A stretch of DNA of 64,000 nt from Undaria pinnatifida (lineage: Eukaryota > Sar > Phaeophyceae > Laminariales > Alariaceae). The stretch is from positions 14,625,016-14,689,015 of the forward strand of contig JABAKD010000013.1 in the NCBI GenBank assembly GCA_012845835.1. The letters run 5' to 3'. Positions 23,861 through 62,939 of this stretch are shown here, in pieces. Under the pieces are notes generated by a model. It was given only the letters and a program-made list of their open reading frames with translations. It searched no databases and was not told the origin of the DNA. The first letter of the stretch is position 1; each line of letters opens with the position of its first letter. The translations under genes were made by a program, and so were the position numbers.

Positions 23861-24544
23861 CCCCCGCCCCCCTCCAAACCCGCTCGCTTTTGATCAAAAC
23901 CAGGCCCCCCCTTTGCCTTCACAGCTGTCAGATTTTGTCCCCCTCAGAAACGGGTTTTATAGTTTCCGCGCACAGACTGACTAAAATCATCCTGTTGACC
24001 CTGATAGCTACACTGTAGCTGTAAGGGGAGTCGCCGACCTATATCCTTAATGAGGACACACAACTCGTAATGCGCGCGATCGGAGTATCACACACAGCTT
24101 GCAAAGATGAGTTTCGACGAAATTTTCGATCTCACAGCTGGAGTGTATTTTAATTTTTATAATATTATAATATAAAGAATAAAAATACACTCCTATAGTC
24201 TATCATATTAGACTATGTTACGTTATATATATTATATTATTAATACCACGTATCATATTTTAGTAAACATAAAAATACACTCCAGCGGTGAGATCGAATA
24301 GTTTGTCGAAACTCATTATATTATACTCCGGAGTATTATACAATATTATACTGACCTCTTTTCATAACAAACCCCAACCCTTTCCCCCCCCCGCCCCTCC
24401 GTCCCCCGATCCCCCCCCCCCCCTTCCGCCTAGTCTGTCCAAACGCCCCACTCACAATCAAAATCGGCCTGAGTAATAAACACCTATACGCAGTTGATAC
24501 CACGTCATTATCTTTCTGACCATCCATGACAAAGGTTTCAATTA

Positions 24545-24579
<35 letters not shown>

Positions 24580-26225
24580 CCCTCCAACGCCCCCTCTTTT
24601 CCGACCACCTACACGATCGCCTAGACCTAGCACCACGCGTATAACAAGCTGCTACATATCTTTGATCTCACAGCCGAAGTGTATATGAATATTATTTGTG
24701 ACCTAAACCTCCTAAAAATCCCCCCCCCCCCCCCTCTTGCTCTCCCTTACTCAAACGCCCCACCAAATATCAAAATCCGCCACATTAATAAACACTTCAC
24801 GCACAGGATATCACCTCATTATCTTTCGAGAGCCATCCATGCCGCTGTGTTCCTCCCCCCCCCCCCCGCCTCGAACGCCCCCTTCTTCCCCATCACCCGC
24901 ACCTTCGCCTAGACCTAGCACCACACGTATAACAAACCCCTCACGTAAAGCCCTTCCCCCCCCCCCCCCCCCCCCCCCCCACCCCCGCCCCCACCCCCCA
25001 CCCTCCCCCCCCAACCCATCCCAACCCCACCCCCTCGAACACTCCACCCTCTCTTTACTCACTGATTGTACGACTTACCCCAGGATATACACGATAAACT
25101 GATGAATTATTTCCAAAAAAGTCACATTTATCCCCTCGAAATAATGTTTAGTTTTCAGGCACATATCGAGCTGCCCCCCCCCCCCCCCCCCCGCCCCCAA
25201 TAATATACTGGTGCCAAAACCGTCAGATTTATCCCCTCGAAAGGATTTATAGCTTACATGCACAAATTGCCCCTTCCCCCCCCCCCCCCCCCCCCCCCCC
25301 CGCCCCCCTCTAAACCCGCTCGCTTTTGATCAAAACCAGGCCCCCCCTTTCCCTTCACAGCTGTCAGATTGTGTCCCCCTCAGAAACGGGTTTTATAGTT
25401 TCCGCGCACAGACTGACTAAAATCATCCTGTTGACCCTGAAAGCTACACTGTAGCTGTAAGGGGAGTCGCCGACCTATATCCTTAATGAGGACACACAAC
25501 TCGTAATGCGCGCGATCGGAGTATCACACACAGCTTGCAAAGATGAGTTTCGACGAAATTTTCGATCTCACAGCTGGAGTGTATTTTAATTTTTATAATA
25601 TTACTGAGTATATAATATTGTACGACTTACAGGATATACATGATAAACTGGTGCATTCTTTCCGAAACCGCCGCATTTATCACCTTGAAAGAATGTATAG
25701 TTTCCACGCACAGATTAAGCTGCCCCGCCCGCCCCGCCGCCCCTCCCCCCCTCTCCCCCATGATAAACTGGTGCATTCTTACTAAAGGCGTCAGATTCAT
25801 CCCCTTGAAGGATTATAGTTTCCATGCACAAACTGTGCTGCCCCGCCCGTCCCCACCCCCTCTGCCCCCCCTCCCGCCCCCCTTTTGATCAAACCCAAGC
25901 CCTCACGTCCTTAAAAACTCCGCCCTCCCCTCACCGGTTATTCGACTCACAGGATTCACTTGATAAACGGATGCATTTCCATCCGCAGCTGTCAGATTTT
26001 GTCCCCTCAGAAACGGGTTTTATAGTGTCCGCGCACAGACTGGCTAACATCACCCTCTTGACCCTGATAGCGACACTACTGTAGTTGCAAGAGGAGTCGC
26101 CGACCTATATCCTTAATGAGGACACACAACCCGTAATACGCGCGATCGGAGTATCACACACAGCTTGCAAAGATGAGTTTCGACAAAATATATTCGATCT
26201 CGCAGCTGGAGTGTATTTTTATTTT
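23861..26225 (+). repeat. P-repeat block, forward orientation, C-run rich
   Basis: Positions 23,861-24,180 and 25,296-25,615 are near-identical units of about 320 bp, and 25,878-26,225 is a third. Shared words are CTTTTGATCAAAACC, CAGCTGTCAGATT, GAAACGGGTTTTATAG, CTGTTGACCCTGA, GGAGTCGCCGACC and GATGAGTTTCGACGAAATT. A short reverse piece at 24,268-24,315 faces the end of the first unit across an AT-rich spacer. Another recurrent part (AATAAACAC...GATATCACCTCATTATC) lies at about 24,450-24,540 and 24,760-24,850. C runs of up to 31 separate the pieces. Confidence 0.7.
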
Positions 26226-49880: not shown

Positions 49881-49993
49881 TGATTAATGTTGAGATACGG
49901 CCTCGAAAGGCCTGTAGGTATCCAAATTTGAGATCATTTGGATGGGTTTCGTATGATAAGGTTGGCGGTTTATATTCGGGGAAGTTAGGAATT

Positions 49994-50019
49994 AGATCGG
50001 AGGCGCGCGCCTCCGATCT
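49994..50019. repeat. Perfect 26-bp palindrome
   Basis: AGATCGGAGGCGC is followed directly by its exact reverse complement. It lies just right of the P-repeat block; function is unknown. Confidence 0.9.
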
Positions 50020-50346
50020 CAGAAGCTATCCCGGGCTCTGGTGGAAACGAATAAAGCTACATATCTACGAAGGAACGAAAGTGAGTACTCTCCGAGGACC
50101 TGCTCAATTGGCAGACCTGCAGGGGACACTCTGTGTCCCCCACCTTTAATTTAACATGTGGCGTCGACGAGCTTGATATGCTATTGTGGCAGCGTTCCTT
50201 CAATCTCTCCATTTTTTTTTCGTTGCGATTTTGCTTTTGCTTTCCATCGAGCCCACAACCCCTGTTCCTTCTCGGGCGGCTTCCCAATGGAGGGAGCGCC
50301 CTTCCTCCTACAACGGCGATCACATCAGCAGTGAGATGGCAGGAGC
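50020..50346. other. No supported gene
   Basis: A frame starting at 50,186 has a hydrophobic N-terminus but continues into the following tandem duplication; see rejected items. Confidence 0.4.
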
Positions 50347-50560: not shown

Positions 50561-51962
50561 CACCGCCAGCTGGTCATAGACTACTCCGTAGTGAAACTGC
50601 CCGAGCCCCACCCATTAGACTTGTTTGCTCCGCGCTCTGCAAGCATGTTGCACAGCACATCTCCGCGAGTTGCCAGCACAAGCCCCAAGATCGGCCATCG
50701 ACTCGTACTTTTTTTTGGCGCTTTGGGGCTCGGAGGCATATGCACGACACGCGACGGACAAGCATGCTGGAATCAACCCTTCGAATGACCTTCGACGGGG
50801 ACTTAGCTTGCTGAGAGAGCCCATCGACCAGCATACACCTTTGCTGTCGGAGCCAGACCGCCCTTCGCGGGACTCCCTTGGACTACGGGCACCGTGCTCT
50901 AGGAGCTCATGTCGGGGCTCCTTCCTTGTGATCCTACCTGGGAAGGAACAGACGGTGCTCGTGGAATGTTTGGGCTTTTTCGTTTGGCGAATTTTCCAGC
51001 ACACGCGTTATCGTATGAGTTTCAGTACATACGTCGATCCGTCTTGTGCGTCGAACAAACAGTTGCTCCCTTTCTGCCGAAATTAGTACAAGCTACTAAT
51101 TTGACGCACCTCGGACCCCTCTCCGATCTTTCTCGATCAACAACGTTCCACTACTGCTGTGCGTCGCGTAGCTTCAACCACCATCATTTTTGCAGAGGTG
51201 CCAACTACAGTGCAGCACAATGGGCTCGCTGTCAATGCTTGCCATATACCGCCGGATTCTCTGCTGTAGAAGTCACTGTACAGCAGCCAAGCCGCCTACT
51301 TTGCTCCTGCCCATCCACCACATAGCTCGACCCTTCACTGCCCCAGCGTCCACAGTTACAGCACCGCAGCTCTGACACCCTCCACTGCTGTGCGAGTGCT
51401 CCTTGCAAGTTCGATTCGAGAGGTTTTCTTTTCGTCCTGCCCCCCCCCGTGACTAGAACTTGAATCTAGTGAACGCTGAAACTCTGTGCTGGCTTTTTTG
51501 GGCGAGGCTGTTGGTGTGTGCGATGCCCTATATTCTACCATTCATGGGTACACGGGGACTATAATACCACTTTCTGTGTATGCACAGCTGTGACAGTGCG
51601 GCACTCTGCACTGCTGTCAACGTAACTGTCCCTTTATCGGTGGGAGTGGGTACGGATTTGTTTTTCAGTTGTCCGGGCGTCAGGCCGTCTTCCTCTTGGT
51701 ACATATGCTGCCCTCCACGATATTGCTAGGGTCTACGCTGGAAATGTTTTTCTTCTTCTTCTCTGCACATGTTCGGACAGCTACTGCCCGTTACAGAGCG
51801 CTTACTACACAGTTCGCGGAGATACTGCGCTTCACAGCTTTTACTAGCGCAGTGGAGATCAGCCCGTTTGATACGGTACCTTTGGGGGCAAACAGCCTTT
51901 CTATTCGACTGTGGGCGTGCACATTTTTCTACAGCTGGTGTTGGTACTACACTATCCATCTT
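50561..51962. other. Region upstream of the Ty3 element; LTR not identified
   Basis: A left LTR of the Ty3/gypsy element would be expected between here and 52,900, but no matching right copy lies in the window to define it. No gene is recognised. Confidence 0.35.
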
Positions 51963-52480
51963 GGTGCGATGAGTGTCAGCGTGTTGGGTGACCTTTCACT
52001 GTGCTGCCCCCCTACACTACACCTAGGGTAAATGCTGCCTGTTGTGGTGCGACGAGTGTCAGCGTGTTGGGTGACCCTTCACTGTGCTTCCACCCCTACA
52101 CTACACCTAGGTTAAATGCTGCCTGTTTTGGTGCGATGAGTGTCAGCGTGTTGGGCGACGCTTCACTATGCTTCCACCCCTACACTACACCTAGGTTAAA
52201 CGCTGCCTGTTTTGGTGCGATGAGTGTCAGCGTGTTGGGTGACCTTTCACTGTGCTTCCACCCCTACACTACACCTAGGTTAAATGCTGCCTGTTTTGGT
52301 GCGATGAGTGTCGGCGTGTTGGGCGACCCTTCACTGTGCTACCCCCTACGCTACACCTAGGTTAAACGCTGCCTGTTTTGGTGCGATGAGCGTGGGCGTG
52401 TTGGGCGAACCTTTATTGTGATAACCCCTACACTGCACCTAGGGTAAATGTTGCCTGTTTTGGTACGATGAGCGCGGGCG
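51963..52480. repeat. 84-bp minisatellite, about 6 units
   Basis: Units start at about 51,963, 52,046, 52,130, 52,214, 52,298, 52,380 and 52,462, each with GGTGCGATGAGTGTCAGCG and ACTACACCTAGGTTAAATGC. The 84-bp period keeps the frame of 52,001-52,360 open with a 28-residue repeat. It lies about 500 bp before the gag-like frame. Confidence 0.9.
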
Positions 52481-52945
52481 TTTGGGGCGACGCTTTCCTG
52501 TGCTACCCCCCCCGCCTAGGTTGAATGATGCCTGTTTAAGTGCGATGGCTGCAGACGTACCTTTACTGTGTTGTACCCCCTGCACTGCGGTTAGGGTCAG
52601 TGCTGCCCAGTTTTGGCTGCTTTTACTGCGGTTCGTGCGGGCGTTACCCATATACCCTACGGTCAGACTGGGCGCTGCTCTTTCGTTGCGGTTTTGATGG
52701 TTGGTACCTTTTTACTGCTGTACTCCTTTTATACGGCTAGTTGGCGTGGCTGCTACCATGACTGATGCTGGACGGAGTCGAGGCCCATGTTTTGCTGTTT
52801 GCTGAAACACAGATATATTGCTACTTACAGCAGGGACATCACAACATTATATCTGCCTCCATAGCTTCTTTACGCGTCGTTCCCATCCCGCCACCTTCCC
52901 CCACACCCCCTCCTTCGGCTGCCCTCCATACAGACAACAAGCAAC
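52481..52945. other. Leader of the Ty3 element, no gene
   Basis: A diverged end of the 84-bp array runs to about 52,560. A primer-binding site could not be assigned. Confidence 0.35.
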
Positions 52946-55063
52946 ATGTCTACCAGTGAGGAAGCGGGCTACTCGGGGCAGGCTGAGGTCTTCCACGCAC
53001 CCCAACCTGGTTGCCCACGAGACAGGGAGAGCTCGCTCGATATGCCGCGACTCGAGACGGGGGAACCACCGATGGTGGGTTCCGGTGACGAGACAGAAGA
53101 CGGAGCATCATACCTCCACCCGTTCCAACCAGCCAAGAGGGTCGATTCGCCGGTTCGCGCTGAGAAGAAGACGGACCAACCCCCACCGGACTCGGGGGCG
53201 TCTCGACGCCAGCTCTCGCCAGCCCCGGGGGAGCGCCACCAGCTCCCCCCCCCCGCGCTCGACAGGGCACCACCGCCGCCACCTGGGCTCTCCGCGCTCG
53301 ACAGAGCGCCACCCCCAGAGCTCCCGGAACCGGGGCGCTCATGCCGCCCCCTTGGACTTGGCATACGCGGCGGCGCGGGCCCAGCGGGCGCTCGACCACG
53401 CCAACCAGACGATAGCACGCCGACGTCGGTTTGACGAAGATATCGAGCAGGCGAAGACCGCTGCGCGGGAAGCGTCCCTGGTAGCGAAGAGGGCGCAACA
53501 AGCCCTCGCCCAATCAGTTGCGGCGGCTGCGGCGGGAGCTACCGCGGCCCCCTTGCCTTCGTCGCACCCGCAGGGTGTCGCATCCCAGCGACCTCGACCC
53601 GGGAACGACGCCTTCTTCAAGGGCATCGTCGCGTGCATGGTGTCTGCACCGGGGGTAGTCATCCCCTCATCGTTGGCGACCGCGGTGGTGGAAACGGCCT
53701 GCGCCCTCCTCCCGTCAAAGAGGCCGGCGTCACGGCAAGCGGACGTCCTCAGTGGAAGCGGCCTGGGCTCGCGTGCATTGTACGCTCTATGATAGACAGA
53801 CGAGAGCCGCCCCGACCCTTGCCCTCGTCAATGCACTGCTAATAGCCCACGACGAGGACCCCGACCCTGTCTTTTGGCCGAACCCCGGAGGAAGCGTTGG
53901 CAGAACGAAACCGGGGAAAATGTCGCGACCGCGGGGACCGCAACCGTGGGGTGGCGGCAAAAATGGTGGGGGTGGCGACCACCACCACCGCCGCGGGGTG
54001 ACAGCACATCGGGTGCTGGTGTGCTTGAGGGCGCCGCCGAGGGGGTAACTTTGGTCCAACAACCGGGACAGTTGGCCGCAGCTCTGGCGGAGGCAACGGA
54101 GGGCGGAGAAATGGCGCGAGAGGACGTTCAGCGTGGGACGGCTCGTCAACCTCCTCCCGCCCGTCTTCGTCCTCGAGCACGGACCACAGCGAGGTGGTCG
54201 TGGTAGGAGACAAAAGTGTCTAGAGCCATGGCAGAAGGAACATCTGGGCCTGAGGCTTTCACCCTCCTGTTGCGTCTGCTGATCACGCACTTCGAATGGG
54301 TTGACACGGAGGAGGGCTACACTAAGTTGCAAACTTTTGGAATGTGTAACGGCATGCCTTTTTCTGATTTCAGTGGGGAGTTTCGCGTACTTATGCCGAC
54401 CGCTAACGGGAAGTGAGCGTGTCTTGTCTCCGGGGACGGATGTGGTGTTGGAGGTGGTTCGGGTGGCGGCGAATGAGCAATTTCCGGCTCTCCTGCCTGC
54501 GTTGTACCCTGGTTCGAAGACAATTGACCCGCGGCCATACGCCTCGTTGGATGCTATGTGGCGGGCTTTTAGTGACTACGCGCATAATGAGACACCTGCC
54601 GTCAACGACGAAACATTTTTTTCCTCTCCCTGTTTCTTTGACGGGAGCGCGGTCATGCGCCCTGTCGGGGCCCCGGCCCGCCGATCATGGGCGCGGCCAC
54701 GGCCGAGTGCCGTCCCAGTCGCTTTCGTGGCAGACGGGATCGAGCCATCATTCAACTGCCATGCCCATCGATGATTCATCTGACCCTTGGCTTGACCACA
54801 CATCGAACTGCTGGCCACTGGAAGAGCATCATTATGCAGAAGTTTTCGCCGTTAAGGCCCCGGTTAAGACAGACGACCCTCCCCTTTGGAGCGGCCTCCT
54901 TTCACCTCGCGCTGATGCCCTCCGAGAAAACCGGGGGCTTTGCCTCAACTGCCACGAAGACAACCATTCCTTCAAGCATTGTAGGCATCGTTTCATTACT
55001 GCGAGTGGCTGCTTGAACCCTGAACTTGGCCAACTTGGCGACGATGACGCACATCGACGTTGA
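52946..55063 (+). pseudogene. Gag of the Ty3 element, frame-broken
   Basis: Pieces in successive frames are: 52,946-53,434 (acidic, Pro-rich, start ATG preceded by CAAC), about 53,330-53,792 (Ala-rich helical, ALDHANQTIARRRRFDEDI), a Ser-rich piece near 54,170, a capsid-like part 54,216-54,416 (TEEGYTKLQTFGMCNGMPF) continued from about 54,400 to 54,774 (DVVLEVVRVAANEQFPALL, then PYASLDAMWRAFSDY), and 54,775-55,063 with a zinc knuckle CLNCHEDNHSFKHC (CX2CX4HX4C). At least four frame changes break it. The knuckle and position before Pol identify it as Gag. Confidence 0.7.
54949..54990 (+). other. CCHC zinc knuckle of Gag
   Basis: The motif C-X2-C-X4-H-X4-C lies in the frame ending at 55,063 and is the hallmark of retroelement nucleocapsid domains binding element RNA. 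Confidence 0.85.
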
Positions 55064-56379: not shown

Positions 56380-56935
56380 GCCAAAAAGCGAAGAGGCCAC
56401 GACGCGAGAAACCGTGGGTTCGGACTCGCGTCGTGCTCCCGAGGCCTGGTGGTCCTGAGGGGGACACTACAGGCCCAAAGAGCCGAGGACTGGTGTTCCC
56501 AGAGGGGGACATTGCAGACATAAATGCCCAACGAGGCTACCGACGGGTTGGCACCGTCGGTGTTGGACTCGTTTTCGGGTGCAATGAGGGCGGCTTCTTA
56601 CGAGTTTCCGCCAGCGAGTGAGGAGGACCCGAGGCGAGAAACCCCAGGTTTGGACTCGCATGTTGCTCCCGAGGCCTGGTGCTCCCGCAAGGGGACATTA
56701 CAGGCCCAAATAGCCGAGGACTGGTGTTCCCAGAAGGGGACATTGCAGACCCACAAATGTCCAACGAGGCTACCGACGGGTTGGCACCATCGGTTTTTGC
56801 CATTTTTCGGGCGCAGTTAGAGCGGATTCTCGCGCTTTTCCGCCAACGAACGAAGAAAGACCTGAGGCGAAATACCACGGGTTCGGATTTGCGTCGTGCT
56901 CCCGAGGCCTGGTGTTCCCGGACGGGGACATTGCA
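56380..56935 (+). repeat. Tandem repeat, units of about 230 bp, within the Pol leader
   Basis: Units at about 56,440-56,670 and 56,671-56,900, with partial units on each side, share CCGAGGCCTGGTG, GGGGACATTACAGGCCCAAA, GCCGAGGACTGGTGTTCCC and CGAGGCTACCGACGGGTTGG. In one frame they encode GLVFPEGDIAD-type peptides leading toward the NADAR frame. Unit changes put the copies in different frames. Confidence 0.8.
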
Positions 56936-57660
56936 GCCCAAACTTCAACACGGATTTTGACCCTTCTCTCGAATACTCGACAGCCAAAGTGGTGTTATTC
57001 TGGCAGCCCCCATCCTATTTTCCACCGTGGTCCCCTTCGTCGTTTGCCGTGGACGACGTACCATATTCTTGCGCGGAGCAGTTTATGATGGCTGAAAAGG
57101 CTCGGCTTTTTAAAGACCATCGCGCAGTGGAGCTCATCATGTCATCGTCTGACCCCAGCACACACAAACGCGTCGGTCGAGGCGTGCGCAACTTTGACAC
57201 CGCCGTTTGGGACAGGGAGAAGCAAAATGCCGTGTCATCTGGCAACTATGCCAAATTTACGCAGAATCCAGCCATGAAAAATCACCTTTTGAGCACTGGC
57301 AACAAATTTCTGGCAGAGGCCAATCCTCTAGACACAGTGTGGGGTATAGGTCTCCGGGCGGACGACCCCCACGCCAAGGATCCACACAAGTGGAGAGGAA
57401 AAAGTTTGCTCGGTGAGGCACTCTCTGCCGTTCGCGAAGCAATTCGCGACAGCGAGGACGGATCGCCACACCCGGCCTCCTCTCGTCGATTCCGCAGGCC
57501 CACCGGGAGTGCTGGAATCCATGAAATTTCATCCGCTCAGCAGTCGCGCTTGGGGACCGCGGTCGGCGCTGACCAAGGCCCTCCTTCGGCCTATTTTTCG
57601 GGTATACCCGCCGATCAAAGCCCGGAGGTTTCGGCGAAAGCCCGGAGGTTTCGGCGATAG
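56896..57660 (+). CDS. NADAR (YbiA-like) domain embedded in Ty3 Pol
   Basis: Residues about 30-180 of this frame match the NADAR superfamily: an N-terminal strand leading to PYSCAEQFMMAEKARLF, then the G-x-x-x-x-x-F-x-x-x-x-W pattern (VGRGVRNFDTAVWDRE), then KFTQNP, LLSTGNKFLAEANPLD, VWGIGL and WRGKSLLGEALSAVRE. All the usual landmarks are present in order. Known members cleave N-glycosidic bonds: YbiA/RibX acts on riboflavin intermediates, and DarT-linked NADAR proteins remove ADP-ribose from guanine in DNA. Here the domain sits between Gag and protease. A 20-bp duplication at 57,619-57,658 shifts the frame just before protease; without it both would be one frame. The host or element role is inferred only. 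Confidence 0.85.
   Translation: MLPRPGVPGRGHCSPNFNTDFDPSLEYSTAKVVLFWQPPSYFPPWSPSSFAVDDVPYSCAEQFMMAEKARLFKDHRAVELIMSSSDPSTHKRVGRGVRNFDTAVWDREKQNAVSSGNYAKFTQNPAMKNHLLSTGNKFLAEANPLDTVWGIGLRADDPHAKDPHKWRGKSLLGEALSAVREAIRDSEDGSPHPASSRRFRRPTGSAGIHEISSAQQSRLGTAVGADQGPPSAYFSGIPADQSPEVSAKARRFRR
57619..57658 (+). repeat. 20-bp tandem duplication causing NADAR-protease frameshift
   Basis: The unit AGCCCGGAGGTTTCGGCGAW occurs twice in a row. Unit 1 starts in the NADAR frame and unit 2 in the protease-RT frame. The NADAR frame stops at TAG (57,658-57,660), while the other frame runs on through protease. Confidence 0.95.
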
Positions 57661-59282
57661 CTTCTCGCGGCGCCTCAGACCGCGCACTGCCAGAACATGG
57701 CCCCTGCCTCGTCGGGGGTACCGTGACGCTGGACGACGATTCTTTCACTACCGATATTGCAATACATAGCGGAGGGGACGCTATTGCGCCCTACATATGT
57801 ACAGCGCTGCTTGACACTGGCTCCCCCCAAACCTTCATCCGTCGTAACGTGTTGGATCGTATGCTATCGGTAGGCGCCGCCTCATCGGCGTGCGAGAGGC
57901 CCAGCAGCCCTCGCTCCTGGGGTGGTTTTGGCGAATCCGCCCCTTTACGGACCGCGACCCACATCCGTCTGAGCGTTCAATTCTTCCTCGAAAAAGAACC
58001 AACATGCTCTCTCGCGGTGTGGGCATGCGTGGTCCCTCCTTCGGTCATGCAGCACGCTGTCTTGCTGGGCCGCGACAGTTGGATGCGCTTCAACACCCGT
58101 TCGTACCGCGCCCTGCCCCCTCGTCCTCTCGATAATCGGGTTTTGGGCGAGCTGACGTTGTCCTACCACGCCACAGCAGGCGTAGCGGCTTATGCCGTCG
58201 ACCCCGCACCATCGAACGGTGCTTTCCACTTTCGCTATGATGGCTCTACAGGTGTCACTTTGTCGGACGAGCCCCAACTGCTCGCGGTCAACTTGGTGCG
58301 CAGTAACGGCTCTCCTGCGCTCACAGGACACTATCTTGTCAACATACTGCCGCAGCCGGATATTCCTTCGGGACAGAAACACTTTGTTGCTTCAGGACGA
58401 CAGGTGCTTCCCGTCATAGGTGTCGCGGACCTCGAGCCAGGCGCCCTTATCGGGGTCGCCGACGCCCCACTTTTGCGCATCCCGCTGGGTGCCTTGCAAC
58501 ACCCTATCAAGGCTGCGGGTCCCCACCCTGGCCAGACTTCGGACAGCCAGGTCTCTGCGGTCGCGAGCCCGACGGGCGCGGAGGGGATAGTGCCCGCCGT
58601 ACCGCCGCCCTCGCCGACGCTTATGGAACGTTTGAACCCAGTCCAACGTTCTGCATTTCTACGCGTCTGGGCGGCCCGACTCCCACCGCACCTGCGGGAG
58701 ATTGCGTTCGACTTACACGATCCTGGTTGGGACCCCCCGACCATTGAGCAACTGGGGGATGTGCTCTGCGACTTTTCTGACGTGTTCTCCACCTCGAAGA
58801 CGGATTTTGGGTCATGCTCCCTAATGACCTTTGAAATCTCGGTTCTGGAGGGCAGCGCTCCGTTCACTTCACGGCCCCATCGCATAAACCCTATACTGGC
58901 CAGAGAAGTGGACGCGACCCTTAACCAATACCTCGCGGCTGGGCTGATTCAGCACTCGACCTCACCGTACTCGAGCCCGCTGGTGGTCATCCCGAAGAAA
59001 TCTATCGGTGTGAGGATCACGGTGAACTACAAGGAGCTCAACCAAATTAGAAAGCTCAGCCAACTGCCGATTCCGCGTGTGGACCAGGTCCTGGACTCCT
59101 TCGGCTCAGGTCGGGTGTTTTCCCTGTTCGGCTTGGTTTCCTCGTTCCACCAGATAGCGGCACACAAGGACATAGTTCCCCTTACAGCGTTCTGCACACC
59201 CACCGGCCTTTATGAGTGGCTCGTTATGCCCCGGGCAGCAGCGCCTCGCCTGGGTGGTTCGTCAAGGTTATCAATGAGGTGA
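57639..59282 (+). pseudogene. Aspartic protease and reverse transcriptase (N-terminal part) of the Ty3 element
   Basis: The protease carries ALLDTGSPQTF (Asp at about 57,813) and a second conserved HAVLLGRDSW. The RT follows after a spacer: YLAAGLIQHSTSPYSSPLV, VNYKELNQ, then motif A as FSLFGLVSSFHQI, where the catalytic Asp is Gly (GGC at 59,130-59,132). The open frame has no Met at its true start because it reads in from the NADAR frame. It ends by a frameshift at about 59,230, after YEWLVMP. Confidence 0.85.
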
Positions 59283-59452
59283 TCAAGGGCTTGACACAGG
59301 TGGCAGCTTACCTCGACGATGTCATCGTGTTCGACTCCGACCCGGTAACGCATGTTCGGACGATTCGCTCTCTCTTCGAACGCCTTCGAAGCACAATCTC
59401 ACGCTTTCCCTCTCGAAGGCGCGTTTGGGCGCTACCGATGCGAACTTACTAG
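59216..59452 (+). pseudogene. RT motif C segment in shifted frame
   Basis: The RT continues here with GSSASPGWFVKVINEVIKGL and the catalytic YLDDVIVF (59,309-59,332). A second frameshift near 59,385 returns the reading to the RNase H frame. Each break is explained by a single-base change within RT. Confidence 0.85.
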
Positions 59453-60648
59453 GCCACTCCATTTCTCCAGCAGGCCTACGCCCAACTTCGGAAAAAGTGT
59501 CGGCATTGACCAATATGCCGATGCCCACTGACGTTAAGCAGGTGCGCGCACTCATGGGTGGTATCAACTATTACCGCAAATTTTTGCCCGACTTATCGAA
59601 GAGACTTCGTCCTATTAACGCACTCCTTCGGAAGGGGGTAAAGTTTGCCTTCACGCCTGCTATGGAGAAGTTGGTGAGAGAAATCTTGGCGGAGCTCACG
59701 ATCCCGCCGGTCCTCGTTTTCCCTGATTGGGACGCCGTCGCCGACGGCATACGCCCGTTGCACGTGTACTGCGATGCCTGCATCGACGGGTTCGGAGCCG
59801 CTCTCGAACAGGAGCAGACGGACGGCTCCATAAAACCCATCGCATACATCAGTCGAGCTACGCTCGACTCGGAAAGGCATTGGATTCCTCTCGATTTGGA
59901 GGCTAGCAGCATCGTCTGGGCTCTCAAGCGCCTCCGCGGCTACCTTTGGGGCACCAAATTCCGAACATTCTCAGACCACAAGGCTCTGGAAAACATAGGC
60001 AAAGTGGGGAATCACAACGGCCGAGTCCAGAGATGGCTCGAGTTCCTCACCGCATTCGATTACACCCTAGAATACCGAAAAGGAAGCGCAAACGGCAACG
60101 CTGACTTCCTGTCTCGCTTGCCGGAGCCTGCCTCGGAACACGACCGCAATGGTTCGACGAGCCTTACCCCTGTTGAGGATGATGGTATTTACCTCGTACG
60201 GGCTTGCGGGCTGTACACTCCTTCTTCTCCGATACCGGGTGTCGGCTTGGGTGGGCTAATGCCCCGCACCGAAAATAATGCTTTGGGTGGGCTTCCTCTC
60301 ACTCTTGCCGACTTTGGCGATTTTCGCACACACGGGCCACGTATGAGGTTTGACGACCTTCCTACTCCTTCCAAGAGATTTGTCGCTTGCGTTTCTGCAT
60401 CGACCGCCACCGTCGATAGCTCGCCCGGCCGAGGCGGGGGCTCGCGTACAGCCGACTACGATTTCGCTTCGGTTTTTGCTGAACCCGCCGTGACCAACGA
60501 GGACTCCGCCGAAGCCCTGGCTGCCACGACATCAGTGGCCCAACCGACTCCTTCCCGAGCTCGGTACAAGGGACAAACCCCGTCGAGCCCATGGGCCCGA
60601 CCGCGTCCGTCCCAACCTCGCCAGGATCTTCGGCGCCCCAGACGATGA
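59386..60648 (+). CDS. RT thumb and RNase H of the Ty3 element, with Pol linker
   Basis: In this frame the RT ends with TLSLSKARLG, then NLLGHSISPAGLRP and MGGINYYRKFLPD. RNase H has VYCDACIDGFGAAL (Asp), LDLEASSIVWAL (Glu), FRTFSDHKALE (Asp) and GNADFLSRL near its end. About 130 residues of Ser/Pro/Thr-rich linker follow before the frame stops. RNase H acidic residues are retained. Confidence 0.85.
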   Translation, partial: SKHNLTLSLSKARLGATDANLLGHSISPAGLRPTSEKVSALTNMPMPTDVKQVRALMGGINYYRKFLPDLSKRLRPINALLRKGVKFAFTPAMEKLVREILAELTIPPVLVFPDWDAVADGIRPLHVYCDACIDGFGAALEQEQTDGSIKPIAYISRATLDSERHWIPLDLEASSIVWALKRLRGYLWGTKFRTFSDHKALENIGKVGNHNGRVQRWLEFLTAFDYTLEYRKGSANGNADFLSRLPEPASEHDRNGSTSLTPVEDDGIYLVRACGLYTPSSPIPGVGLGGLMPRTENNALGGLPLTLADFGDFRTHGPRMRFDDLPTPSKRFVACVSASTATVDSSPGRGGGSRTADYDFASVFAEPAVTNEDSAEALAATTSVAQPTPSRARYKGQTPSSPWARPRPSQPRQDLRRPRR

Positions 60649-61375: not shown

Positions 61376-62047
61376 CTCACATTAACTCGCATAATCAAGT
61401 CCGTGGTCACAGGACAGGCTCCAGTCACTCTGGAGCTGAGGAATACCCCAGGGAAACCACACACACAACCCAAGGTGGTACACGCATATATCACAGCTGA
61501 CGCAATTCATGCCTCCACCAGAAACATATAAAAGTGAAATCGGGAGTCAGTCTACGATGTGCCAGGTCCAGGCCGGTGCATACGTCTCACTACTCACGCC
61601 TGGAGGAACCAAATATTCCGATTGCCACCCAAGTAAGACTACCACGTATATATTACACGTAGTATCTATCACTACGCACACGCACGACAGGCATAAGTCA
61701 ATTGGAGAAAAATAAACAAAGAAAAGAAAAGAAGATAAAGGAAAGGAAAGAAAAAAGAAGAAAAAACGAAACAAGACGAAAAAGGCAAGCAAAGAGAAAA
61801 AAATTACAAGAAAAGCAAGAAAAGACAAGACAGGAAAGCAAGGAAAGAAGAAGAGCAAAAAAGAAAAAAGAAATAGAAAAAGAAAAGAAAGAAAAATTTC
61901 ATACTCACAGACCTTAGGAACTGGCTAAGGATGGCATTGGGCTAACAGAGGGTATCACGTCCATCATCAATGGCACCTGGGAGAGAACGCAGCATGGCGA
62001 AGAAGTCAGGGCGGTCTTATGCTATCTTGTGACGGCCATTAGATCAT
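61345..62047 (-). mobile_element. (CAA)n-tailed element, fullest copy, nested in Pol
   Basis: On the minus strand it runs from about 62,041 to a (CAA)n tail at 61,345-61,373. The hexamer GATCAT flanks it at 61,339-61,344 and 62,042-62,047, as a target-site duplication. Removing the insert and one repeat restores the integrase frame exactly. It shares with 2,340-2,857 the polypyrimidine tract and body, and has an extra 5' part of about 120 bp (61,915-62,041), suggesting a more complete element. Confidence 0.85.
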
Positions 62048-62939
62048 GCAAGCTTGCCACTCGACGGCCTCCTGCCACCTTGGCACCACGCGCACGTTGC
62101 GCATGCTGGAGCATTTTTATTGGTGGATTGGCATGAGTGTGTGTACCCGGTGGTGGCTTCGCCACTGCTTGAAGTGCCAAGCGCGGAAAACCCCACGGCT
62201 GACTGTCCGCTGGCCCATCATCACAATGCCTCTGCCGGAAGGTCCAGGTATCGCCGCCAGTGTTGACTACTTCGGCCCCCTTCCGGTCACACCACGAGGC
62301 AACACCTACATCCTGCTGTTCACCGATCGCTTCAGTAGGGGGGCCGACATGTTCCCCGTCACTGCCGCTGAGTTCACCGCGGAAGGTACAGCCAATATCC
62401 TGGTGAACCAATACATCCCCTTGTGGGGGTGCCCGCGCACCATACTCTCAGACAACGGACTGCAGTTCTGCTCCAAGCTTTCACAAGCTGTATATCAGCT
62501 GTTAGGTGTACACAAGCTTGCTACAAGCTCATATCACCCCAACTGTAACGGGGGCGTTGAGCGGGTAAATCACACTATGGCACAAATGCTGGCTATGGTC
62601 GTCAACGAGTGACAAGACGACTGGGACTTGCATCTGCCCCACGTAGAATTCGCTTACAACAACTCTGTCAGCGCGGCGACGGGTTTGGCGCCCAACGAGG
62701 TCCACATGGGCAGACTCCCACGGCTCCCCCTGACGATTTTCGACCGCACAGGTGTCGTGGGACACCAGAGTCTGGCCCGTGACCACCTGGCCTATTGCGA
62801 TTTGGCCACCGACCGGCAAAAGCGCGCAAACGACATTGTCCGCGCACACCACGCCCTCACCGTTTCCCGTGTTAACCGCAGAAATTCCGCCCTCGCCAAC
62901 GCGCTGCGTCCAGCACCTAACTTCACTGTGGGTGGTTAG
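62046..62939 (+). pseudogene. Integrase of the Ty3 element, one internal stop
   Basis: The HHCC zinc finger is visible (HSTASCHLG, then HCLKC). The catalytic core has Asp in SVDYFGPLP (62,265), Asp in LSDNG (62,451) and Glu in NGGVERVNH (62,559), so the D-x61-D-x35-E spacing is intact. A TGA at 62,610-62,612 splits the core from NSVSAATGLAPNEVHMG, in the same frame. TAG ends this section at 62,937. Confidence 0.85.

What the first reader, a model, noticed from the sequence alone, without database searches (positions are those of the whole stretch)
56896..57720. NADAR domain built into a Ty3/gypsy Pol between Gag and protease
The sequence shows a full NADAR signature directly before the protease of a Ty3 element, in the same orientation. 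NADAR enzymes act on N-glycosidic bonds of ADP-ribosyl or riboflavin-type substrates, and some reverse ADP-ribosylation of guanine in DNA. The inference is that the element uses it to remove ADP-ribose put on its cDNA or RNA by a host defence, or to alter NAD-linked signalling. I cannot exclude that related elements have been noted before.
Basis: partly seen in the sequence, partly recalled or inferred. Interest (0 to 1): 0.9.

Follow-up and report, generated by a model that had tools for sequence, protein, structure and literature searches.

The report
ADP-ribose enzyme inside algal retrotransposon
A family of brown-algal jumping genes carries, inside its replication polyprotein, an enzyme domain of bacterial type that in other organisms removes ADP-ribose from DNA; this was reported in 2025 for a related alga, so the find itself is known, although its purpose is still open.

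Summary
Confirmed. Window 56998-57447 encodes a full NADAR domain (Pfam E 4.7e-47) in the Pol of a Ty3/gypsy element with LTRs 264/273 identical and a TTAA target duplication. The window copy is frameshifted, but the genome holds at least 150 NADAR matches, several in open frames of 2371 or 2473 codons. Intact layout: Gag, in-frame UGA, then Pol = linker, NADAR, protease, RT, RNase H, integrase. Eight ADP-ribose-site residues are all kept in 43 of 59 copies; the predicted fold matches the ADP-ribose-bound Phytophthora NADAR 8bau.

It is not new: Genome Biol 2025 (PMC12477816) reports NADAR near the Pol N-terminus of an Ectocarpus Gypsy lineage. Added here: affinity to Myxococcota/Planctomycetota NADARs; constraint on NADAR beside a freely changing linker; a Gag-UGA-Pol junction seen in both subfamilies; and two distantly related Ty3-like polyproteins with NADAR, one between RNase H and integrase (P0175), one before RT with a MACROD1-like domain after integrase (P0229). 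Best reading: an active hydrolase that clears ADP-ribose from element nucleic acid. No substrate was tested, and the search for host ADP-ribosyltransferases did not complete.

The parts
49884..49887 (.). target-site duplication TTAA, 5' side (3' side lies past the window, L049:1048-1051)
   Evidence: TTAA directly before the 5' LTR and directly after the 3' LTR; copy L051/L032 has TATA on both sides (there in an AT-repeat, so weak)
49888..50156 (+). 5' LTR (TGTTGAG...TTTAACA); the 3' LTR lies past the window end (L049:779-1047)
   Evidence: 264 of 273 aligned bases identical; in copy L051/L032 the LTRs are 100% identical over 267 bases
51961..52512 (+). 84-bp tandem array (6.6 copies) in the 5' leader of the element
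   Evidence: alignments between L031, L033 and L041 upstream of Gag shift by about 84 bases as such an array would
52865..55063 (+). Gag remains, frameshifted; extent inferred from ORFs and from the layout of other copies
   Evidence: ORFs; no Pfam match for Gag pieces
54941..54982 (+). Gag CCHC zinc knuckle
   Evidence: CX2CX4HX4C; same motif in 5 of 6 upstream pieces of other copies (not in L033)
56400..56942 (+). 233-bp tandem repeat (2.4 copies) in the Pol N-terminal linker just before NADAR
56998..57447 (+). NADAR domain (YbiA subfamily), ORF 56866-57660
57807..57824 (+). aspartic protease motif LLDTGS, ORF 57573-59282; frame differs from NADAR in this copy
   Evidence: translation; in the NADAR frame in 30 of 30 best loci
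58947..60069 (+). reverse transcriptase and RNase H, frameshifted
   Evidence: the relative L042 is closest to Ty3 RT among solved structures, 4ol8, E 2e-62
62043..62540 (+). integrase H2C2 zinc-binding domain and rve core
   Evidence: PF17921 E 1.5e-10, PF00665 E 6.9e-08

Best explanation
A Ty3/gypsy LTR retrotransposon whose Pol polyprotein carries a YbiA-type NADAR hydrolase between a fast-changing linker and the protease. Shown: domain, fold prediction, kept ADP-ribose site, position, copy number, recent insertions. Inferred: Pol is made by readthrough of an in-frame UGA after Gag, so NADAR is packed with RT in the particle at low dose; there it cleaves the N-glycosidic bond of ADP-ribose on guanine (or a similar base adduct) of element RNA or cDNA, clearing lesions that would stop reverse transcription or mark the element for host defence.
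For: Residues around ADP-ribose in the Phytophthora NADAR crystal (PMC11543638, passages read), in 39 own copies: E43 37, K50 37, K75 38, R79 39, W89 39, E125 38, D130 39, W133 38; R93 is K in 34 and R in 5. With 20 further, lower-ranked copies the eight (R93 aside) are all kept in 43 of 59. The AlphaFold2 model (pLDDT 93.6) has as best PDB match 8bau, NADAR with ADP-ribose, E 1.7e-10. Between two Pol subfamilies of this genome NADAR is 47% identical with synonymous sites saturated (pN 0.387, pS 0.775), whereas the linker before it is 24% (pN 0.567, pS 0.712): selection keeps NADAR. The junction AAC-TGA is at the same place in 20 of 30 best loci (five of these read again) and occurs in L039 and L046 of subfamily 2. 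Two Ty3-like polyproteins whose RT is only 31-36% identical to that of the algal elements also hold NADAR: P0175 between RNase H and integrase, P0229 before RT with a macrodomain after integrase. Other relatives, apparently bacterial, join NADAR to PARG, ARH and macrodomains (P0174, P0184). Ectocarpus siliculosus has a PARP homologue (PMC4245714, passage).
Against: No substrate, expression or particle data. YbiA of E. coli acts on riboflavin intermediates (PMC11543638) and does not protect from DarT1 in cells (PMC11125620, passage). R93, which touches the pyrophosphate, is C in 6 of 14 NADAR-RT polyproteins aligned (also C in Nannocystis L065). The macrodomain of P0229 lacks the NAAN and glycine-loop motifs that I recall as catalytic, so it is probably no hydrolase. 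The genome search for a host PARP did not complete; PMC2964712 found no PARP in its 'brown algae' (Aureococcus). dN/dS between copies of one subfamily is uneven, 0.21 to 0.85, with one pair undefined; 16 of 59 copies have lost at least one of the eight residues. UGA readthrough is read from sequence only; in 10 of 30 loci a nearer stop comes first.
Confidence: 0.42

Rival explanations
1. NADAR acts on soluble NAD- or ADP-ribose-derived signals of the host (cyclic ADP-ribose or variants), blunting a defence signal, as proposed for phage NADARs.
For: PMC9503650 (passages) argues that phage Macro/NADAR domains mostly target low-molecular-weight derivatives; the residues that hold ADP-ribose are kept.
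Against: [quoted passage not shown] placement inside Pol favours a substrate in the particle (inference). Whether brown algae use such signals was not looked into.
Confidence: 0.22
2. NADAR serves RNA processing or end repair of the transposition intermediate, the role suggested in PMC12477816, possibly with a cap- or RNA-end-linked substrate.
For: SNA-3, a nematode trans-splicing factor tied to the cap-binding complex, needs its NADAR residues (PMC9303266, passages); P0230 joins NADAR to mRNA capping and cap-methyltransferase domains, and P0231 and P0232 are annotated likewise.
Against: No defined reaction; it overlaps with the best explanation if the substrate is ADP-ribosylated RNA.
Confidence: 0.2
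3. A YbiA-like N-glycosidase for damaged metabolites such as riboflavin intermediates, carried as a metabolic helper.
For: The domain is of the YbiA subfamily by its E125-equivalent glutamate, and E. coli YbiA has this activity (PMC11543638).
Against: No evident reason for such an enzyme in a Gag-Pol product; recurrence in several Ty3-like Pols is then unexplained.
Confidence: 0.08
4. Passenger domain without a function for the element.
For: Many copies decay; the position in Pol differs in P0175.
Against: NADAR is held between subfamilies with saturated synonymous sites while the linker is not; the site is kept in most NADAR-RT polyproteins aligned; reported as highly conserved in one Ectocarpus lineage.
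Confidence: 0.04

Closest known systems
Ectocarpus NADAR-bearing Gypsy lineage (Gypsy-12_Ec32; PMC12477816, passages read)
   Same: [quoted passage not shown] RT of Ectocarpus protein P0124 is 72.5% identical to that of L042
   Different: Another genome (511 Mb); a second NADAR subfamily on a long branch; no chromodomain recognised in the C-terminal pieces of L040 (Pfam and PDB sequence search) and L032 (Pfam only). The Gypsy-12 sequence itself was not at hand.
Tx1 LINE ORF1 NADARs of Crassostrea gigas (PMC12477816)
   Same: NADAR in a retrotransposon protein
   Different: Non-LTR element, ORF1, described as divergent; not compared here
Phytophthora nicotianae NADAR (8bau; PMC11543638)
   Same: Fold and ADP-ribose-site residues; YbiA-type glutamate; that enzyme removes ADP-ribose from guanine
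   Different: Not part of a retroelement polyprotein as described; 27% identity in the structural alignment
Bacterial NADARs of Nannocystis and other Myxococcota, and two Planctomycetota
   Same: 56-62% identity over the domain for Nannocystis (L065-L067, L071-L073) and Planctomycetota L068, L077; nearest groups in the tree
   Different: Free bacterial genes, not retroelements
NADAR/Macro domains in polyproteins of animal RNA viruses (PMC9503650, passages)
   Same: ADP-ribose enzyme inside a replication polyprotein
   Different: RNA viruses; in animal RNA viruses Macro and NADAR are said to be largely mutually exclusive, though the paper also notes tandem NADAR-Macro proteins in several viruses; P0229 holds both

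Membership tests
Ty3/gypsy LTR retrotransposon | Pol order PR-RT-RNase H-IN with RT nearest Ty3 | tested here: met
   L042 RT nearest to Ty3 among solved structures
Ty3/gypsy LTR retrotransposon | LTRs with TG...CA ends and short target-site duplication | tested here: met
   TG...CA, TTAA; copy L051/L032 TATA
Ty3/gypsy LTR retrotransposon | tRNA primer-binding site after the 5' LTR | tested here: inconclusive
   TGGCGTCG begins two bases after the LTR; not matched to a tRNA
NADAR superfamily, YbiA subfamily | Profile match and fold | tested here: met
NADAR superfamily, YbiA subfamily | Glutamate (E125-equivalent) in the last strand | tested here: met
   present in the window copy and in 54 of 59 copies
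NADAR superfamily, YbiA subfamily | N-glycosidase / ADP-ribosyl-guanine hydrolase activity | not testable with these tools
   needs an enzyme assay
[quoted passage not shown]
   (RT 72.5% to Ectocarpus P0124); the Gypsy-12 sequence itself was not compared
Ectocarpus NADAR Gypsy lineage (Gypsy-12_Ec32) | C-terminal chromodomain | tested here: inconclusive
   no chromodomain hit for the C-terminal pieces of L040 and L032; sequence searches only
DarT1-associated antitoxin NADAR (BC4488 type) | Aspartate in place of E125 | tested here: not met
   glutamate in 54 of 59 copies; the other 5 read G, G, K, Y or a stop
DarT1-associated antitoxin NADAR (BC4488 type) | Partner DarT gene alongside | not tested
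   no search made for DarT

The most novel reading that the evidence does not exclude
Ty3-type retroelements of several lineages have independently taken up ADP-ribose enzymes (brown-algal NADAR-PR-Pol; P0175 with NADAR between RNase H and integrase; P0229 with NADAR plus a macrodomain), which would point to an unrecognised eukaryotic defence that ADP-ribosylates retroelement RNA or cDNA and which these elements undo.
Probability: 0.3. Interest if true: 0.85.

Novelty: new member of a known kind. Interest (0 to 1): 0.48.

Why it matters
Nucleic-acid ADP-ribosylation is known as a weapon and defence in bacteria. A retroelement that keeps an ADP-ribose hydrolase in its own polyprotein would give a direct handle on whether eukaryotes use it against mobile elements. 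NADARs in three Ty3-like Pol arrangements, one with a macrodomain, make that question testable with a small soluble domain.

Tried and rejected
Rejected: chance match (E 4.7e-47); a host NADAR gene merely beside an element (150 scored places, PR motif in the same frame in 30 of 30 best loci); catalytically dead relic as a rule. Not supported: capture from a virus. NADARs of viral contigs are 44-51% identical to L002 (7 loci) or 39-43% to P0175 (2 loci) and none falls in the brown-algal group; these scans use a few peptide patterns, and the viruses' hosts were not looked up.

Open or negative: does the second subfamily (L039, L043, L044, L046, L050) come from a separate capture? It sits alone on a long branch, but one clade with the rest is not rejected (p-AU 0.366), and its RT is 78% identical to subfamily 1. 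Holding P0175 and P0229 with the brown-algal NADARs is not rejected either (p-AU 0.299); their independence rests on position and RT divergence. Whether stand-alone algal NADAR proteins (P0048, P0053, P0063, P0093, P0097) gave rise to, or came from, the element domain is undecided (p-AU 0.491). The bootstrap of the 84-row tree had not settled. Scans of viral contigs with P0229 and with the L042 RT found no relative. Eight of the nine ORFs of 180 codons or more in the first 49.8 kb were scanned and have no Pfam match.

Not answered: the genome search with the RT protein and with PF00644 PARP gave only 'busy', so the share of RT copies without NADAR and the presence of a host transferase are untested.

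Full report
What is there. The window element runs from a 5' LTR at 49888-50156 to a 3' LTR ending 1047 bases past the window (L049), about 15.2 kb; the LTR regions match at 264 of 273 bases and TTAA flanks both sides. After the LTR come an 84-bp tandem array, broken Gag with a CCHC knuckle at 54941-54982, a linker with 233-bp repeats, the NADAR domain at 56998-57447, protease, RT, RNase H and integrase. The coding part of this copy is frameshifted in several places; NADAR itself is open.

Is it more than one copy? The family search scored 150 of 1454 first-look candidates; each of the 150 exceeds the Pfam cut-off, the window copy at E 3.8e-45. Several lie in open frames of 2371 or 2473 codons. 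In the 30 best loci the protease motif follows NADAR in the same frame in 30 of 30. The junction AAC-TGA-CAG precedes Pol at the same place in 20 of 30; in the other 10 a stop nearer to NADAR comes first and the junction was not examined. In five upstream pieces, which belong to five of those 20 loci, Gag and Pol share one frame across this TGA. Of eight further loci, L039 and L046 (subfamily 2) have AAC-TGA 315 codons before NADAR; five have a nearer stop, and in L044 the frame runs open past that place to another stop. One copy has LTRs 100% identical over 267 bases, so the family has moved recently (inference).

Domain identity. Pfam, a PDB sequence match to 8bau (E 2.9e-12), and an AlphaFold2 model (mean pLDDT 93.6, 34 rows) with 8bau and YbiA 2b3w as the only PDB matches at E 0.001 or better agree. 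Numbering follows the Phytophthora enzyme of PMC11543638 (passages read); I mapped it through the printed alignment, where the chain index is the paper's number plus two. The 59 own copies are the 30 best loci, 8 loci, the window copy, and 20 more of the places ranked 31-150. Counts: E43 56, K50 56, K75 58, R79 59, W89 55, E125 54, D130 58, W133 57; R93 is K 43, R 15, N 1; the other eight all together in 43 of 59. Active-site columns change less than the average column in 43 subfamily-1-like copies (0.027 against 0.042; no significance test). In 14 other NADAR-RT polyproteins K50, R79, W89, E125 and D130 are kept in 14 of 14; K75 in 13 (I in P0128); W133 in 13 (G in P0126); E43 in the 10 that reach it (four rows start after it); R93 is R in 7, K in 1 and C in 6.

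Selection. Subfamilies 1 and 2 (L002/L041/L042 against L039/L040) share 47% of NADAR residues with synonymous sites saturated, 78% in RT-RNase H, 50% between NADAR and RT, and 24% in the linker before NADAR, where pN 0.567 approaches pS 0.712. NADAR is thus constrained, though less than RT. Pairs within a subfamily give dN/dS from 0.21 (window) to 0.85 (L030), one pair undefined; some of these copies are decaying.

Relatives and origin. The nearest named bacterial NADARs are of Nannocystis, other Myxococcota and Planctomycetota (best 59-62%). In the 84-row tree 27 brown-algal-type NADARs form one group (99/92) inside a 46-row group (97/87) whose named bacteria are Myxococcota and Planctomycetota; the bootstrap had not settled. 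Subfamily 2 falls outside on a branch of 0.84; one origin is not rejected. Short NADAR proteins named Pylaiella, Ectocarpus (two) and Scytosiphon, and one unnamed, fall inside the group, direction undecided. That the host is a brown alga is inferred from these neighbours and from the Ectocarpus polyproteins.

Other retroelements. Of 24 proteins in which my profiles found both NADAR and RT, 22 have NADAR before RT with RT 58-89% identical to L042 over the aligned part (22 to 375 residues); the other two are P0175 (RT before NADAR, RT 34%) and P0229 (NADAR before RT, RT 31%). P0175 has NADAR at 791-940 between RNase H and integrase. P0229 starts inside NADAR and carries, after integrase, a macrodomain (1339-1435, E 1.9e-19) closest to MACROD1 (E 2.6e-30) but without the NAAN and glycine-loop motifs, which I recall as catalytic. 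In the tree the two NADARs pair with each other (88/90) near the PARG-ARH-NADAR proteins P0184 and P0174. Their organisms are unknown.

Literature. [quoted passage not shown] So the arrangement is known. I saw no paper on NADAR plus macrodomain in a Ty3 element in the listings (20 of 104 listed; 15 of 15; 1 of 1; 2 of 2; 10 of 56; 6 of 6); the library is open-licence PMC only. PMC6338049 (passages) on accessory retrotransposon domains has no occurrence of NADAR or YbiA. PMC2964712 reports no PARP in brown algae, where its listed species is Aureococcus, while PMC4245714 reports a PARP homologue in Ectocarpus siliculosus.

Mechanism. Shown: position, conservation, predicted fold. Inferred: readthrough, packaging, hydrolysis of ADP-ribose from element nucleic acid. 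The main support for ADP-ribose rather than flavin chemistry is context: relatives joined to PARG, ARH and macrodomains, and a Ty3-like polyprotein with NADAR and a macrodomain. The main gaps are the absence of any assay and the unanswered host-transferase search.

Noticed in passing
protein P0229: Ty3-like polyprotein of unknown source with NADAR, RT, RNase H, integrase and a MACROD1-like macrodomain with degenerate motifs.
   Followed up: partly
protein P0175: Ty3-like polyprotein with NADAR between RNase H and integrase, a place not seen in the algal elements examined.
   Followed up: partly
proteins P0230, P0231, P0232: NADAR annotated together with mRNA capping enzyme and cap guanine-N7 methyltransferase domains; own scan made for P0230 only; source unknown, perhaps large DNA viruses.
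   Followed up: no
proteins P0174, P0184 and similar: Multidomain proteins, apparently bacterial, joining microbial PARG, ADP-ribosylglycohydrolase and NADAR, often with a macrodomain.
   Followed up: no
proteins P0048, P0053, P0063, P0093, P0097: Short stand-alone NADAR proteins, four named as Pylaiella, Ectocarpus or Scytosiphon and one unnamed; four of five have a small Cys/His-rich N-terminus. Donor or domesticated copy of the element domain.
   Followed up: partly
window 61724-61898: Purine-rich low-complexity repeat lying between RNase H and integrase of the window copy.
   Followed up: no
window 24001-26000: GC skew of -0.46, with C-rich tandem repeats at 25113-25300 and 25639-25873.
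   Followed up: no
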